Shown here: positions 15,858 to 20,437 of the stretch, piece by piece
Layout of the letters: each line of letters opens with the position of its first letter
How positions within the stretch are numbered: position 1 is the first letter of the stretch
Assembly: GCA_021820845.1 (NCBI GenBank)
Contig: JAKADC010000005.1
Span: 1-64,000 of the forward strand
Length of the DNA: 64,000 nt
Direction of reading: 5' to 3'
DNA from: Pseudomonadota bacterium
GTDB lineage: Bacteria > Pseudomonadota > Gammaproteobacteria > Burkholderiales > Thiobacillaceae
Made by a program: the position numbers and the translations under genes
Notes under the pieces: generated by a model
Databases searched by the model: none
What the model was told of the DNA's origin: nothing
The model's input: the letters and a program-made list of their open reading frames with translations, nothing else

Positions 15858-16337
15858 TCAGACGCGCCGGCCGTCCGGCTTCTTCTCCTCGCCCCCATAC
15901 ACCCCGGCGTGATCGAACGGGATCCAGACGGGTGAACGGTCGGTCTTGATGCGGCCGTGGATGCGATAGGGCACGCCTGCCTTCAACGCTTCCGGCGACA
16001 GGTCCTGCAGCTGCCGGATCAGCTTGTCCGATTGCGTGACGGCGTCGATCCGCAGCAGCGTGCTGGATGCCGCCGCGATGGGGGTGGCGTCGTGCGTCAG
16101 GGCGCTGGCGAAAGGCTGCCCGTTCACGTCCAAATCGAACTCCACCGCCTCGACGGTCAGCCCGAAGTCGTTCGGATTGCTGACACGCAGGTCGACGTCG
16201 AAATGCTGCTCGAAGAATCCGAGCCGCTTGACGGCGATACCGGCGACGCTCACCTTCGGCGCGACGGCGTTGCGCGGCAGGCCGGAACAGCCGGCGAGGC
16301 AGAGCACGAGGAACAGGATGAGCAGACGCTGTGGCAT
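15858..16337 (-). CDS. LEA type 2 family lipoprotein
   Basis: A 159-residue lipoprotein. The lipobox LCLAGC puts the lipidated cysteine near residue 17, so the protein is membrane-attached in the periplasm. The mature part resembles the LEA14/water-stress domain: VAGIAVKRLGFFEQHFDVDLRVSNPNDFGLTVEAVEF. Such beta-sandwich domains are stress-associated; their molecular role in bacteria is unclear. The start at 16337 (MPQRLLILFLVLCLAGC) is preferred to an upstream ATG without signal sequence. It is the last gene of the DUF971-radical SAM-ATP-grasp-kinase operon, 7 nt after the kinase stop. Confidence 0.85.
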   Translation of the reverse strand: MPQRLLILFLVLCLAGCSGLPRNAVAPKVSVAGIAVKRLGFFEQHFDVDLRVSNPNDFGLTVEAVEFDLDVNGQPFASALTHDATPIAAASSTLLRIDAVTQSDKLIRQLQDLSPEALKAGVPYRIHGRIKTDRSPVWIPFDHAGVYGGEEKKPDGRRV

Positions 16338-16344
16338 TCGGGGC

Positions 16345-17220
16345 CTACCGGACCTGCGACAGCAGCTGGGCGAGCATGCGCTGCGCCTGCGCCGCATAGC
16401 CGCCGCCGAACAGGTTGGCGTGGTTGAGGATGTGATAGAGATTGTAAAGCGTCTTGCGCACGGCGTAGCCCGCGTCCAGCGGCCATGCCTCGCGGTACGC
16501 GGCGTGGAAATCGGGCGCGAACCCGCCGAACAGTTCGCTCATCGCCAGGTCGCATTCGCGGTCGCCGAAATACGGCGCGGGATCGAAGATCACAGGCGTT
16601 CCATCCGCCAGATAGCCGTGATTGCCGCCCCACAGGTCGCCGTGCAGAAGCGAGGGGACCGGCGCGTAGCCGTCGAAAAAAGCGGCGAGGTGCGCAAGCA
16701 GGCTGTCGCCGTCCCGCTGCAGCGCGCCGTAGCCGTTTTCGGCTGCAAGCCGCAACTGAAAGCCGAGCCGTTCCGCGCGCCAGAAATCGATCCAGCCCTC
16801 GTGCCAGGCATTCGGCTGGGGCGTGGCGCCGATCCAGTTGTCGCGCGTCCAGCCGAATTGCTCAGCGCCGGCGCGGTGCTGCTGCGCGAGTTGCCGCCCC
16901 AGGCGCGCCGCGTCGCCCCGCGCGCCGAGCGGCAGATGTTCGAGCACCAGATAGGCCCGCCCCGCCGCCGTGCCGTGGCAAACAACGCGCGGCACGCGCA
17001 CGGCGTGCGCCGCCGCCAGTTCGGCGAGCCCTGCGGCTTCCGCTTCGAACAGGTCGAGCCGGGCGGCGGGCTGGACCTTGACGAAGAATGTGCGATCGCC
17101 GTCGCCGAGCGTGAAGGCGTCGCTGATGTCGCCGCCGTGGACGCTTCGTGCGGCGCCCGCCTCGAACGGCGCGCCGATGGCGCGCCCGATCGCGGCGGCG
17201 AGCTCGGCGCGAAGCGTCAC
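16345..17220 (-). CDS. Fructosamine/ketosamine-3-kinase family protein
   Basis: A 291-residue aminoglycoside-phosphotransferase-fold kinase. The family phosphorylates ketosamines formed by glycation so that they break down, although many bacterial members have unknown substrates. Diagnostic motifs are SVHGGDISDAFTL near residue 27, FFVKVQ near 45, LVLEHL near 93, LLHGDLWGGNHGY near 185 and FDPAPYFGDRECDLAM near 207, so catalytic and metal residues are present. The GTG start at 17220 overlaps the TGA of the ATP-grasp gene by 4 nt, showing coupling. The context with a radical SAM enzyme and an ATP-grasp ligase suggests a dedicated pathway instead of generic deglycation; this is inference. Confidence 0.88.
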   Translation of the reverse strand: MTLRAELAAAIGRAIGAPFEAGAARSVHGGDISDAFTLGDGDRTFFVKVQPAARLDLFEAEAAGLAELAAAHAVRVPRVVCHGTAAGRAYLVLEHLPLGARGDAARLGRQLAQQHRAGAEQFGWTRDNWIGATPQPNAWHEGWIDFWRAERLGFQLRLAAENGYGALQRDGDSLLAHLAAFFDGYAPVPSLLHGDLWGGNHGYLADGTPVIFDPAPYFGDRECDLAMSELFGGFAPDFHAAYREAWPLDAGYAVRKTLYNLYHILNHANLFGGGYAAQAQRMLAQLLSQVR

Positions 17221-18434
17221 GGCTCGATCAGCGGCTGGATGTGGACCGTCAGCGCGGCATGGGCTTCGCGCAGGATCGCCTCGGCCCGATCGGGCGTCGC
17301 CGCGCGGCTGAAGAGAAAGCCCAGGTAGGCCGCGCCCTCCGGCGGCGGCGCCACCAGCTGGCCGGGTTGAACGGTGATGTCGACGCCGGTGACGCCGGGC
17401 ACGGCGCGCGCGACATCGAGCCCGTCGATGCCGTGAAAGATGCCGTGGGCCGGAATGGGGATCATCATCACGCCGGCCGCGCCGCCGTTCGGCCGCGACG
17501 GCAGCGGCAGGCCGACGGCATGGCGCAGCACGATCTCGGCCGCGTCCATGCCGAGCGTGGATGCGAGCACGCGCCCGCACAGGCCGCCGATGCCGCGCGG
17601 CGCGATTTCGAGCAGCCAGACCCCGCCGTCGTTGATGCGCGCTTCGGCGTGAACCATGCCTTCGGTGACGCCGGCCGCGACGCACGCGCGCTCGACCGCC
17701 TCGGCGAATTCGCGCTGCGTCGCCGCGGGCAGCCGCGACGGCGTCACGAACAGCGTTTCCTCGAAATAGGGCCCGTCGAGCGGATCGGGCTTGTCGAATA
17801 CGGCGAGCACCTGCAGGACGCCGTCGACCAGCACCCCGTCGAGCGCGGCCTCGACGCCCGGAATGAAGCGTTCGACCAGCAGTCCCTGCTTGTCGCGCTT
17901 GGCGCGTGCCTGGATGCGCTCCACCTGCTTCAGTGCGCGAACAAGCTGCTCGGCATCGTCGACCCGCACCACGCCGCGGCTGGCGTTCAGCCCGCGTGCC
18001 TTCACCACCAGCGGAAAGCCCAACGCGAGCGCGGCGGACGCGTCGCCTTCGGCCTCGACGAACGCCGGACAGCGCAGGCCGAGTGCCTGCTGCAGCCGGC
18101 GAAACTGCAGCTTGTCGGTGAGCTTCGCCACCGCTTCGGGAAGGTTGCCCGGCAGCCCGAGCGCGGCGCGCAGGCGCGCGGCGAGCGGCTGTCCGTGGTC
18201 GTCCACCGCCAGCACGGCGTCGACAGGTTGCTTCAACGCTTTTCGGACCCGCGGCAGCGCGGCATCCGGCCGGTCGAACGGCACGCTCATCAGCGGCGGC
18301 AGGCCCCAGCCCAGCGCGAGCTGCGGGCAATAGTCGGCGCAGGCGACGAGCTCGATGTCGAGCCGCGCGGCGGCGGCGATGAAATCCTGGTTGGCGTAGC
18401 CGGCGGCGGGAAGCAGAAGCAGAAGGCGCGCCAT
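17217..18434 (-). CDS. ATP-grasp ligase-type protein
   Basis: A 405-residue soluble protein with the ATP-grasp fold. The ATP-binding lysine segment is PLVVKARGLNASRG near residues 143-158; LLVERFIPGVEAALDGVLVDG near 185 and VHAEARINDGGVWLLEIAPRGIGGLCG near 260 carry the metal-binding acidic residues. It resembles carboxylate-amine/L-amino-acid ligases more than carboxylases. The product is probably an amide or peptide bond through an acyl phosphate, but the substrates are unknown. The ATG at 18434 is 4 nt after the radical SAM stop, and the stop overlaps the kinase start. Confidence 0.85.
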   Translation of the reverse strand: MARLLLLLPAAGYANQDFIAAAARLDIELVACADYCPQLALGWGLPPLMSVPFDRPDAALPRVRKALKQPVDAVLAVDDHGQPLAARLRAALGLPGNLPEAVAKLTDKLQFRRLQQALGLRCPAFVEAEGDASAALALGFPLVVKARGLNASRGVVRVDDAEQLVRALKQVERIQARAKRDKQGLLVERFIPGVEAALDGVLVDGVLQVLAVFDKPDPLDGPYFEETLFVTPSRLPAATQREFAEAVERACVAAGVTEGMVHAEARINDGGVWLLEIAPRGIGGLCGRVLASTLGMDAAEIVLRHAVGLPLPSRPNGGAAGVMMIPIPAHGIFHGIDGLDVARAVPGVTGVDITVQPGQLVAPPPEGAAYLGFLFSRAATPDRAEAILREAHAALTVHIQPLIEP

Positions 18435-18438
18435 CGCG

Positions 18439-19851
18439 TCAAAAGCCGGTGAGCTGCGTTTCGGTCGGTTCGGCGCAGCAGTACCACGGTTCCGAATGGT
18501 GCGGGATCGGCTCGCCGAACTGCGCGGGATCGAGCGGCGGCGGCGCTTCGCCGAGCGCCGCGTGCGTGCGAGCCCAGACCCCGGCAAAAACTTCGGCGCG
18601 CGGAAGCCCGGCTTTTTCGGCGTCCATCACCCAGGCCATGACGTCGCGCTGCAGCGCATCGACGCGCGGGTCGTCCGCCTGCCAGGGATAGCCCAGCATG
18701 GCCTCGTCGAAGGCACCGACCCGTGCCGCGAAATCCGGCAGGTGCAGGAGATGCGAGCCCTGCGGCACCAGCAGGCGGATCGCCAGTTGCACCGGCGGAA
18801 CCGCTTCCACCAGACGCAGCTTCAGCAAGGTGGCGAGCAGGTCGCGATAGCCGGTCAGCGTGGTCCACGGCGTGAACGGCACGAAGGTCGGCGCCACCGC
18901 GATGCCGAGCGCGCGGCAGTGCGCCAGCGCCCGTTCGAAATCGGCGCGGGTGTGGCCCTTGGCGAGCCTGTCGAGAATCGCGTCGTCGACCGACTCGACG
19001 GCGCTGACGACGAACAGCAGCCCGCACGCCTTGAGGCGCGGCAGCAGATCGGCGTGATTCAGCAGGTGCTCGACCTTGATCGTGGCGTCCCAGCTCAGAT
19101 CGGGGAAACGAGCGTGCAGCGCCTCGGCCACTTTGAGCGCATGGGTCGGGCCGTTGAGAAAATCGGGATCACCGAAGCTGATGTGCTGCGCCCCCGCTTC
19201 GACCTGCTGCGCGATGTCGGCGATCACGGTTTCCGCCGGCACGATGCGGAACCTGCCCTCGTACACCGGCACCACCGGACAGTGGCGGCAGAGATGCTTG
19301 CAACCGCGGCTCGCCTCGGTGAAGCCGGTCGTGTTCTGCGTGCCGTCGGCGAGGATCAGCTTGGCGTAGCGCCCCAGCTCGGGCAGGCCGCGCCGCTCGG
19401 GCAGCAGGAATTCGATCTTGTCGCGCCGCACCACGCTACCGCCCGGCGCCGCGCCCGATCGCACCCATGCGACGAGGTCAGGTTCCGATTCGCCGCCGAA
19501 GATCGCCTCGACGCCGAGGCCTTTCAGCCACGCCGCATTGACCGGGGCGTAGAGGCCGAACGCGGCGATTCGCGCACGCGGGGCGAGCGCGCGGATTTTC
19601 GGCAGGGCCGCCGCGGCGATCCGCGTGGCGGTGTGCATGCCCAGGTAGATCGCCACGTACTCGGCATCGGCGAAGGTCGCGGCGTCGAGCTGCTGCTGGG
19701 ACAGGTCGACGCAGGCGGCGGCGATGCGCTCGCGCGCGAACCACGCCGCGGGCTGCGCCAGGTTGAACGGCTGCCGGCCCAGCTCGTAGGGGCTCACCAA
19801 AACAACACGCGCCCCGGAGGGCGCGCAGGTGTTTGCCGAGCAGACGGTCAT
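18439..19851 (-). CDS. Radical SAM protein with C-terminal CCAEP tail
   Basis: A 470-residue enzyme. Residues about 12-150 look like a cobalamin-binding-type Rossmann domain (GARVVLVSPYELGRQPFNL, YVAIYLGMHT, FGGESEPDL) but lack the DxHxxG cobalamin motif. The radical SAM core follows, with the CxxxCxxC cluster motif in SRGCKHLCRHCPVVPVY and the downstream SFGDPDFLNGP. The extreme C-terminus reads WYCCAEPTETQLTGF. This matches, as I remember it, a family called CUAEP/CCAEP-tail radical SAM (seleno)proteins, in which one of the paired cysteines can be selenocysteine. Here both codons are TGC. The function is unknown. The start at 19851 is 10 nt after the DUF971 stop. Confidence 0.88.
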   Translation of the reverse strand: MTVCSANTCAPSGARVVLVSPYELGRQPFNLAQPAAWFARERIAAACVDLSQQQLDAATFADAEYVAIYLGMHTATRIAAAALPKIRALAPRARIAAFGLYAPVNAAWLKGLGVEAIFGGESEPDLVAWVRSGAAPGGSVVRRDKIEFLLPERRGLPELGRYAKLILADGTQNTTGFTEASRGCKHLCRHCPVVPVYEGRFRIVPAETVIADIAQQVEAGAQHISFGDPDFLNGPTHALKVAEALHARFPDLSWDATIKVEHLLNHADLLPRLKACGLLFVVSAVESVDDAILDRLAKGHTRADFERALAHCRALGIAVAPTFVPFTPWTTLTGYRDLLATLLKLRLVEAVPPVQLAIRLLVPQGSHLLHLPDFAARVGAFDEAMLGYPWQADDPRVDALQRDVMAWVMDAEKAGLPRAEVFAGVWARTHAALGEAPPPLDPAQFGEPIPHHSEPWYCCAEPTETQLTGF

Positions 19852-19861
19852 GGACAGCGTC

Positions 19862-20260
19862 TCACTTGGCCTTCGGACGCTGCTCGAACATCTTGGCGAT
19901 GCCCGGATCGCGCGAGGCGCCGGCGGCGTCCATGCGCCGGAGATATTCGTCCCACAGCGCGGCCTGGTTGACGCCCAGATCGTGAAGGTATTCCCACGAA
20001 TAGATGCCGGTGTCGTGGCCGTCGGAAAAGAAGAAGTTGATGCCGTACAGCCCGACCGGCTCGGCGGCATTGATCATCACCTCGCGCTTGCCGACCTGCA
20101 GCACTTCCTGGCCGGGACCGTGGCCGCGCACTTCGGCGGACGGCGAATAGACGCGCAGGAACTCGAACGGCATCTCGAAGCGCGCGCCGTCGGAAAAGGC
20201 GATTTCAAGCTTGCGCGAAGCCTGGTGCAGTTTGATGTCGGTGGGGGTGGGAATGGCCAT
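19862..20260 (-). CDS. DUF971 family protein
   Basis: A 132-residue protein of the DUF971 / gamma-butyrobetaine-hydroxylase-like N-terminal family. Typical strings are TDIKLHQASRKLEIAFSDGARFEMPFEFLRV and FFFSDGHDTGIYSWEYLHDLG; the family is linked in the literature to Fe-S or iron handling, but a firm role is lacking. It is first in a five-gene operon with the CCAEP radical SAM gene 10 nt downstream. In other betaproteobacteria this gene is often next to ubiE; that partner is absent here. The start was taken at the ATG matching the family N-terminus. Confidence 0.88.
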   Translation of the reverse strand: MAIPTPTDIKLHQASRKLEIAFSDGARFEMPFEFLRVYSPSAEVRGHGPGQEVLQVGKREVMINAAEPVGLYGINFFFSDGHDTGIYSWEYLHDLGVNQAALWDEYLRRMDAAGASRDPGIAKMFEQRPKAK

Positions 20261-20360: not shown

Positions 20361-20437
20361 TGGCGCGCCCGGCGCGATTCGAACGCACGACCCCTGCCTT
20401 CGGAGGGCAGTACTCTATCCAGCTGAGCTACGGGCGC
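20361..20437 (-). tRNA. tRNA-Arg, anticodon CCG
   Basis: A complete cloverleaf is readable on the minus strand. The acceptor stem is GCGCCCG/CGGGCGC, the D-arm region is AGCTCAGCTGGATAGAGT, and the anticodon stem CTGCC/GGCAG has loop CTCCGAA giving anticodon CCG (reads CGG, Arg). The T-arm has TTCGAAT, the discriminator base is G, and the CCA end is encoded at 20363-20361. The length is 77 nt including CCA. Confidence 0.96.

What the first reader, a model, noticed from the sequence alone, without database searches (positions are those of the whole stretch)
15858..20260. Five-gene operon built around a CCAEP-tail radical SAM enzyme
DUF971, a radical SAM protein ending in WYCCAEPTETQLTGF, an ATP-grasp ligase, a fructosamine-kinase-like protein and an LEA lipoprotein are packed with junctions of 10, 4, -4 and 7 nt. 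The CxxxCxxC cluster and the ATP-grasp and kinase catalytic residues are intact. I recall the CUAEP/CCAEP tail family only as an uncharacterised group with selenoprotein members; here the tail uses two TGC codons. Radical chemistry, an acyl-phosphate ligase and a sugar-amine-type kinase together suggest a small-molecule or peptide modification pathway not yet described.
Basis: partly seen in the sequence, partly recalled or inferred. Interest (0 to 1): 0.75.

Follow-up and report, generated by a model that had tools for sequence, protein, structure and literature searches.

The report
Radical-SAM plus amino-acid-ligase two-gene module
A pair of neighbouring genes, a radical enzyme related to the one that builds an arsenic antibiotic and an enzyme that looks like a dipeptide maker, comes and goes as a unit in related sulfur bacteria and probably makes an unknown amino-acid-derived compound, while the three other genes of the supposed operon look like ordinary residents.

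Summary
The five genes, order and junctions (10, 4, -4, 7 nt) are as described; the pathway reading is half right. The radical SAM and ATP-grasp genes belong together: the ATP-grasp lies within 1.5 kb in 33 of 62 dereplicated loci, and in a 369-genome class sample 19 of 23 radical-SAM genomes hold it against 47 of 346 others; in the host genus 15 genomes have both, 21 neither. Kinase, LEA and DUF971 genes are outside the unit: in 20 of 20 located loci of genus members lacking the pair, DUF971 is followed by the kinase gene (gap 48-151 nt, not 2645-2737). So this is a two-gene module in a resident locus. The radical SAM protein is a true CUAEP/CCAEP member (585 bits, cut-off 500); its nearest characterised kin is ArsL, reported to attach SAM's aminocarboxypropyl group to arsenite; both end in Cys-Cys tails, and six of seven ArsL loci opened also carry an ATP-grasp gene. 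I propose aminocarboxypropyl transfer to a soft acceptor on the tail, then ligation by an L-amino-acid-ligase-type enzyme. The chemistry is inferred; no arsenic genes lie nearby, and an iron-sulfur role of the ligase is not excluded.

The parts
18439..19851 (-). CUAEP/CCAEP-tail radical SAM protein (470 aa), core of the module
   Evidence: NF040546 585.1 bits, cut-off 500; AF2 model mean pLDDT 92.7
17217..18434 (-). ATP-grasp, L-amino-acid-ligase type (405 aa), core of the module
   Evidence: PF13535 and LAL_C2 over gathering scores; best solved relative BL00235, 3vot, 133 bits; co-occurs with the radical SAM
19279..19302 (-). CxxxCxxC motif (C184, C188, C191) expected to hold the [4Fe-4S] cluster
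   Evidence: read in the translation; invariant in 18 aligned members
18475..18480 (-). tail Cys458-Cys459 (TGC TGC); in Thermomicrobium the second codon is TGA
   Evidence: invariant in the 18 rows of A1; L132 7369-7371 TGA
19862..20260 (-). DUF971 / GBBH-like_N protein; resident upstream neighbour, not part of the losable unit
   Evidence: PF06155 103.6 bits; upstream, same strand, within 1.5 kb in 24 of 62 loci; kept without the pair
16345..17220 (-). fructosamine/ribulosamine 3-kinase family protein; resident, outside the module
   Evidence: PF03881 353.6 bits; best solved relative protein-ribulosamine 3-kinase 6oid; kept without the pair in 20 of 20 loci
15858..16337 (-). LEA_2 lipoprotein; resident, outside the module
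   Evidence: PF03168 68.2 bits; found after the kinase in 14 of 20 loci without the pair; of the other 6, one stretch ends too soon and five have over 500 nt without a hit

Best explanation
A two-gene module, radical SAM plus ATP-grasp (about 2.6 kb), sits between the resident genes DUF971 and FN3K. Shown: in the host genus the two genes are present or absent together, and they co-occur across the class; the radical SAM protein groups with ArsL; both families have a Cys-Cys pair near the C-terminus. [quoted passage not shown] The ATP-grasp enzyme, whose closest solved relative makes Met-Gly, then ligates this amino acid to another through an acyl phosphate. The kinase and LEA genes play no part. 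My own weights: module boundary 0.95, ArsL kinship 0.9, ACP chemistry 0.4, dipeptide-type ligation 0.35.
For: Module: ATP-grasp within 1.5 kb of the radical SAM gene in 33 of 62 loci; 19 of 23 radical-SAM genomes against 47 of 346 others hold it, odds ratio 30, p=3e-12; by taxonomic family 14 of 15 against 26 of 166 (in one of the 14, f31, the two genes were seen in different genomes); genus 15 both, 21 neither, 0 split; empty site in 20 of 20 located loci. ArsL kinship: second-best NCBIfam model 221.7 bits, third 46.4; BLASTP E 4e-63 to 5e-48 for five ArsL-type proteins over about 400 columns, in a very small database; one clade against 7 other radical SAM proteins, 100/99; 51 near-invariant shared positions. 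ArsL chemistry: PMC8552651 (abstract and passages); PMC12159101 (passages), which cites Yao 2024. ATP-grasp near 6 of 7 ArsL loci opened. BL00235 makes Met-Gly and Met-Met (PMC6920838 passages; match).
Against: The protein is not ArsL by that family's own model (222 bits, cut-off 450) and lacks the third tail Cys (CCAEP against RCCLKC). The alignment of the two tails spans a long gap, so the Cys pairs match by lying near the C-terminus rather than by flanking sequence. No arsenic-type gene was found in the window or the 101 radical-SAM loci apart from two weak methyltransferase hits (E 2e-5 and 4e-5, 27-28% identity). ArsL-linked ATP-grasps are only 22-24% identical to this one, so that parallel may be convergent. 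Four of 23 radical-SAM genomes lack a detectable ATP-grasp, and 47 genomes have the ATP-grasp without the radical SAM, so the ligase has some role without it; where its surroundings were read, it mostly follows an A-type Fe-S carrier paralogue (19 of 20 loci). Thermomicrobium shows no annotated ATP-grasp within 6 kb. No activity was measured.
Confidence: 0.4

Rival explanations
1. The module is real, but the radical SAM enzyme does ordinary 5'-deoxyadenosyl chemistry on a small molecule or peptide; the Cys-Cys or Cys-Sec tail is a redox shuttle, as the C-terminal pairs of ribonucleotide reductase and thioredoxin reductase are (recalled). The ATP-grasp enzyme activates a carboxylate of the product.
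For: Best solved fold match is AprD4, a radical SAM dehydratase. A Cys-Sec tail fits redox work. No arsenic-type gene lies nearby.
Against: The nearest characterised sequence family is ArsL, not a 5'-deoxyadenosyl enzyme.
Confidence: 0.3
2. The pair serves iron-sulfur metabolism: YggX and a dedicated A-type carrier next to these genes in many gammaproteobacteria (and DUF971 here, whose Fe-S link through HCF101 is recalled) point to a modified Fe-S carrier or ligand, with the ATP-grasp enzyme acting on the A-type protein or on an iron-binding metabolite.
For: Of 20 fetched loci in which the ATP-grasp gene lies away from the radical SAM gene, 19 have the A-type paralogue directly upstream by the coordinates (12 by my own gene calling; exception L146). 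It is not ErpA: 81-85 bits against a cut-off of 117 for the 3 scored. It is in 17 of 23 radical-SAM genomes and in 7 of 45 others at over 170 bits, the same 7 that hold the ATP-grasp (G141 has a middling 123-bit hit). Iron_traffic (YggX) genes adjoin several loci.
Against: The host genome has no close copy of the paralogue, nor has G334, although both enzymes are there. A radical SAM enzyme needs an Fe-S supply anyway, and the neighbourhood is a housekeeping one.
Confidence: 0.18
3. Five-gene pathway as first proposed, with the fructosamine-kinase-like enzyme phosphorylating the product of the other two.
For: Tight same-strand packing in this genome and DUF971-radical SAM-ATP-grasp-kinase order also in Sulfuriferula, Sideroxydans and a UBA bacterium.
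Against: Kinase retained without the pair in 20 of 20 loci, near the radical SAM gene in only 7 of 62 loci, and no specific co-occurrence.
Confidence: 0.05
4. A cobalamin-dependent radical SAM methyltransferase, given the Rossmann-like N-terminal domain.
For: Fold matches to OxsB, TsrM and MgmA and weak B12-type model hits.
Against: No B12-binding Pfam domain detected at E 0.01; AprD4, the best fold match, does without cobalamin (recalled).
Confidence: 0.07

Closest known systems
NCBIfam NF040546, CUAEP/CCAEP-tail radical SAM (seleno)protein
   Same: Full-length match over the curated cut-off, CxxxCxxC and CCAEP tail.
   Different: Nothing; this protein is a member. The family has a name but no stated function.
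ArsL, arsinothricin biosynthesis radical SAM protein (NF040542, RCCLKC tail)
   Same: Homologous over about 400 alignment columns, one clade with CUAEP in a 34-row tree, Cys-Cys near the C-terminus, ATP-grasp near 6 of 7 loci opened.
   Different: Below the ArsL cut-off; tail CCAEP instead of RCCLKC (no third Cys); longer C-terminal region before the tail; no ars genes found nearby.
L-amino acid ligases (BL00235, BacD, RizA)
   Same: ATP-grasp_4 plus LAL_C2 domain; 133 bits to BL00235, 26-27 bits to BacD.
   Different: Distant in sequence; partnered with a radical SAM enzyme.
Fructosamine/ribulosamine 3-kinases (PF03881)
   Same: Full-length family match, nearest solved relative protein-ribulosamine 3-kinase.
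   Different: None seen; an ordinary member that adjoins the module.
AprD4 (6fd2), radical SAM diol dehydratase
   Same: Best fold match, TM about 0.7, N-terminal Rossmann-like domain plus barrel.
   Different: 20% identity; a Cys-Cys tail is not known to me there.

Membership tests
NF040546 CUAEP/CCAEP-tail radical SAM | Score over the curated cut-off of 500 bits | tested here: met
   585.1 bits
NF040546 CUAEP/CCAEP-tail radical SAM | C-terminal C-(C/U)-A-E-P motif | tested here: met
   WYCCAEP; WYCCAEP in 96 of 101 loci; of the other five, three read WYCCSEP, one WFCCAEP, one is truncated
ArsL (NF040542) | Score over the curated cut-off of 450 bits | tested here: not met
   221.7 bits
ArsL (NF040542) | RCCLKC tail | tested here: not met
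   tail is WYCCAEPTETQLTGF
ArsL (NF040542) | ars genes nearby (arsM, arsQ, arsN1, arsR, arsB, arsC) | tested here: not met
   none in the window or 101 loci by tblastn with labelled queries, apart from two weak methyltransferase hits; the rest of the host genome was not searched for them
ArsL (NF040542) | Transfer of the 3-amino-3-carboxypropyl group of SAM | not testable with these tools
   needs enzyme assay
L-amino acid ligase | ATP-grasp domain plus LAL_C2 domain | tested here: met
   PF13535 86.5 and PF18603 63.0 bits, both over gathering
L-amino acid ligase | ATP-dependent dipeptide synthesis from free amino acids | not testable with these tools
   needs enzyme assay
Fructosamine kinase PF03881 | Full-length match over gathering score | tested here: met
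   353.6 bits, residues 7-288 on profile 5-287 of 288
Cobalamin-dependent radical SAM methyltransferase | B12-binding domain | tested here: not met
   only PF04055 found in Pfam; the fold alone resembles that class

The most novel reading that the evidence does not exclude
A chromosomal pathway in Thiobacillus and other beta- and gammaproteobacteria in which an ArsL-like radical SAM enzyme builds a new 'element amino acid' (2-amino-4-X-butanoate, X a soft atom or chalcogenol captured by a Cys-Cys or Cys-Sec tail), which a dedicated L-amino acid ligase caps as a dipeptide: arsinothricin-type chemistry outside any arsenic operon.
Probability: 0.2. Interest if true: 0.85.

Novelty: new variant of a known kind. 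Interest (0 to 1): 0.6.

Why it matters
It gives an uncharacterised enzyme family (394 related stretches in one genome collection) a concrete chemical hypothesis, a partner enzyme and a clean genetic control, because related species carry the same locus with and without the pair. It also shows ATP-grasp genes near ArsL-type enzymes in six of seven loci opened, which the passages I read on arsinothricin do not mention.

Tried and rejected
Arsenic link: tblastn with labelled ArsM, ArsB, ArsC, ArsR, ArsH, ArsN1, ArsQ, aquaporin, CobW-type and other queries gave nothing in the window, the 101 radical-SAM loci or the 20 ATP-grasp loci, except two weak ArsM-like hits and, as expected, the ATP-grasps themselves. 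The rest of the host genome was not searched for ars genes.

Selenium in the A-type carrier: one search reported one TGA each in G156 and G267; reading them shows what look like natural stop codons, so I dropped it. SECIS: the stretch after the Thermomicrobium TGA folds little better than shuffles (z -1.24, 20 of 200 shuffles as good); the selenocysteine reading there rests on TGT-TGA-GCG-GAG-CCG alone.

Gain or loss: the DUF971 plus FN3K tree needs 4 changes (2-4 over bootstraps, at least 2 by starred branches) and does not settle gain against loss; three outgroup loci with the same order argue for an old arrangement with losses.

Limits of counts. Class searches scored at most 4 candidates per genome. 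The 45 genomes without the radical SAM are 45 of the 346 such, taken down its list before I knew their partner genes; one search repeats the ATP-grasp test on all 369. Several of the 21 genus members without the pair are incomplete (70-84%). Family totals assume the 181 family codes seen. In 2 of the 20 empty-site loci (L176, L182) the kinase matched in two pieces. Gene calling is crude; the neighbour counts quoted come from tblastn or from the coordinates. Neighbours of the ATP-grasp other than the A-type protein and YggX varied. Distribution: 1 of 299 genomes of a phylum sample, the window's own.

Literature: CUAEP, CCAEP and RCCLKC had 0 papers. The ArsL text search also matched the author name Arslan (PMC5554334, passages), discarded. 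PMC9312934 and PMC13188914 (passages) do not name this family in what I searched. The other papers were seen only as search listings. On this check I raised the iron-sulfur rival from 0.15 to 0.18 and lowered the 5'-deoxyadenosyl rival from 0.33 to 0.30, because the A-type neighbour proved to be upstream in 19 of 20 loci, not 12.
Full report
What is there. The five minus-strand genes exist as described, with junctions of 10, 4, -4 and 7 nt. A tRNA-Arg(ccg) gene lies just upstream at 20361-20437. Host: the window is contig C4 of a 2.85 Mb genome. The closest loci (82-89% identity) bear titles that are mostly Thiobacillus, and several contig lengths of the host-genus genomes equal those of Thiobacillus records, so the genus is Thiobacillus by inference.

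Family assignments. The radical SAM protein is NF040546 (585 bits, cut-off 500); the next best NCBIfam model is ArsL (222 bits), then a drop to 46 bits. The ATP-grasp protein has PF13535 and LAL_C2, the kinase PF03881, the last gene LEA_2, the first PF06155. Among solved structures the ATP-grasp protein is closest to the L-amino acid ligase BL00235 (133 bits; next 50 bits), which makes Met-Gly and Met-Met according to PMC6920838 (passages); the kinase is closest to protein-ribulosamine 3-kinase.

Which genes belong together. From 101 radical-SAM loci (the window, 20, and the 80 kept of 394 relatives), dereplicated to 62 at 85% radical SAM identity, tblastn finds the ATP-grasp within 1.5 kb in 33, DUF971 in 24 and FN3K in 7; LEA within 8 kb in 3. 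Of 56 loci with at least 1.3 kb of downstream sequence, 31 have the ATP-grasp. In a class sample of 369 genomes, 23 hold the radical SAM over its cut-off and 66 the ATP-grasp at E 1e-60; 19 hold both, 4 only the radical SAM (G147, G174, G207, G299), 47 only the ATP-grasp, 299 neither (Fisher p=3e-12). By taxonomic family: 14 of 15 against 26 of 166, one of the 14 (f31) with the two genes in different genomes. No correction for phylogeny beyond the family level was made.

The empty site. In the host genus 15 of 36 genomes hold the radical SAM. The same 15, and none of the other 21, hold the ATP-grasp. Of those 21, 20 gave a DUF971 locus (G391 did not), and in all 20 the next matching gene is FN3K; LEA follows in 14, while of the other six one stretch ends too soon and five have over 500 nt without a LEA hit. 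The DUF971-FN3K gap by tblastn edges is 48-151 nt in these 20 and 2645-2737 nt in 14 genus loci and 3 outgroup loci with the pair. The supposed five-gene operon is therefore a resident locus with a two-gene module inside it. A DUF971+FN3K tree needs 2-4 changes of state. FN3K itself is widespread: 20 of 23 radical-SAM genomes and 31 of 45 others (p=0.14), and by the coordinates only the window genome among them has it beside the radical SAM.

Kinship with ArsL. tblastn against plasmid records found 18: one CUAEP protein (Thermomicrobium roseum, 44%), sixteen annotated RCCLKC-tail or ArsL (27-30% identity, 82-85% of the query), one other radical SAM. In a tree of 20 CUAEP, 7 ArsL and 7 other radical SAM proteins (the latter from the best weak hits), CUAEP plus ArsL form one clade at 100/99 and ArsL one at 99/100; CUAEP alone is one side of a branch in 48% of bootstrap trees, so ArsL could also lie inside it. 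51 positions are near-invariant in both families, among them the three cluster cysteines and the two tail cysteines, the latter aligned across a long gap. PMC8552651 (abstract and passages) reports that ArsL makes hydroxyarsinothricin from arsenite and predicts transfer of the 3-amino-3-carboxypropyl group; PMC12159101 (passages) describes that transfer as catalysed by a radical SAM enzyme, citing Yao 2024, which I saw only as a citation.

ATP-grasp beside ArsL. Of seven annotated ArsL/RCCLKC loci opened (of sixteen records), six carry an ATP-grasp gene within a few kilobases (Priestia megaterium, Alicyclobacillus, Klebsiella, Pantoea agglomerans, Priestia filamentosa, Pantoea ananatis) and one does not (Pseudomonas amygdali). 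They are not independent: two genera appear twice. The four ligases compared are 22-24% identical to the window's, and the three scored resemble PRK02186 more than it does (115-193 bits against 90). The parallel is suggestive, not proof of orthology.

Selenium. The Thermomicrobium gene is annotated to end at ...WFC; the DNA reads TGT TGA GCG GAG CCG, that is Cys-TGA-Ala-Glu-Pro, as the family name implies. The 23 over-cut-off matches of the class sample have no in-frame stop.

Structure. The AF2 model (18-row alignment) has mean pLDDT 92.7, tail blocks 82-84. Foldseek's best solved matches include AprD4, OxsB, TsrM and MgmA: an N-terminal Rossmann-like domain and a radical SAM barrel. Pfam finds no B12-binding domain. 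I could not measure the distance from tail to cluster.

A wider partner set. I fetched 20 loci in which the ATP-grasp gene lies away from the radical SAM gene. In 19 (all but L146) a PF01521 protein lies directly upstream by the coordinates. It is not ErpA (81-85 bits against 117 in the three scored; ErpA-like copies with a CGCGS tail lie separately in L140, L141, L151 and L159). At over 170 bits it is in 17 of 23 radical-SAM genomes and 7 of 45 others, those seven being exactly the ones with the ATP-grasp at over 280 bits; the window genome has none. Iron-trafficking (PF04362) genes adjoin several loci. This may mean dedicated cluster delivery, or an Fe-S role of the ligase; it is the main unresolved point.

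Mechanism. Shown: module boundary, co-occurrence, ArsL kinship, tail cysteines. Inferred: ACP transfer to a soft acceptor bound by the tail, then amino acid ligation. Against it: no arsenic genes nearby, no third tail Cys, ligase present without the radical SAM in 47 genomes, no assay. The kinase looks ordinary and incidental.

Noticed in passing
L133, L134, L136, L137, L138, L139 (plasmid ArsL loci): ArsL/RCCLKC loci of Priestia, Alicyclobacillus, Klebsiella and Pantoea carry an ATP-grasp gene, and by annotation a GTP-binding or cobalamin-biosynthesis-type gene (CobW-like in L136, the one scanned) and mostly an aquaporin, unlike the arsQ-arsL-arsM locus L135; they may make a ligated derivative.
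   Followed up: partly
L140-L145 and L147-L159, e.g. L148 8134-9883: An A-type Fe-S carrier paralogue, usually with a Gly/Cys-rich tail (GTCGACGAAGGGC type), directly precedes the ATP-grasp gene in 19 of 20 fetched loci, also in genomes without the radical SAM gene.
   Followed up: partly
L132 5935-7440: The Thermomicrobium CUAEP gene is annotated as ending at TGA, probably a selenocysteine codon, so the public protein is likely truncated.
   Followed up: partly
L113, L105, L116: Three loci have a WYCCSEP instead of WYCCAEP tail, so the motif is C-C-[AS]-E-P.
   Followed up: no
19806-19827, minus strand: A terminator-like stem-loop followed by TTGTTTTGG lies inside the first codons of the radical SAM gene (7 such sites found in the scanned region against 3.6 in shuffles), possibly chance.
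   Followed up: no
G034:C1:1203546-1205055 (within L159): In a genome without the radical SAM gene the ATP-grasp match falls in two pieces, perhaps a decaying gene.
   Followed up: no
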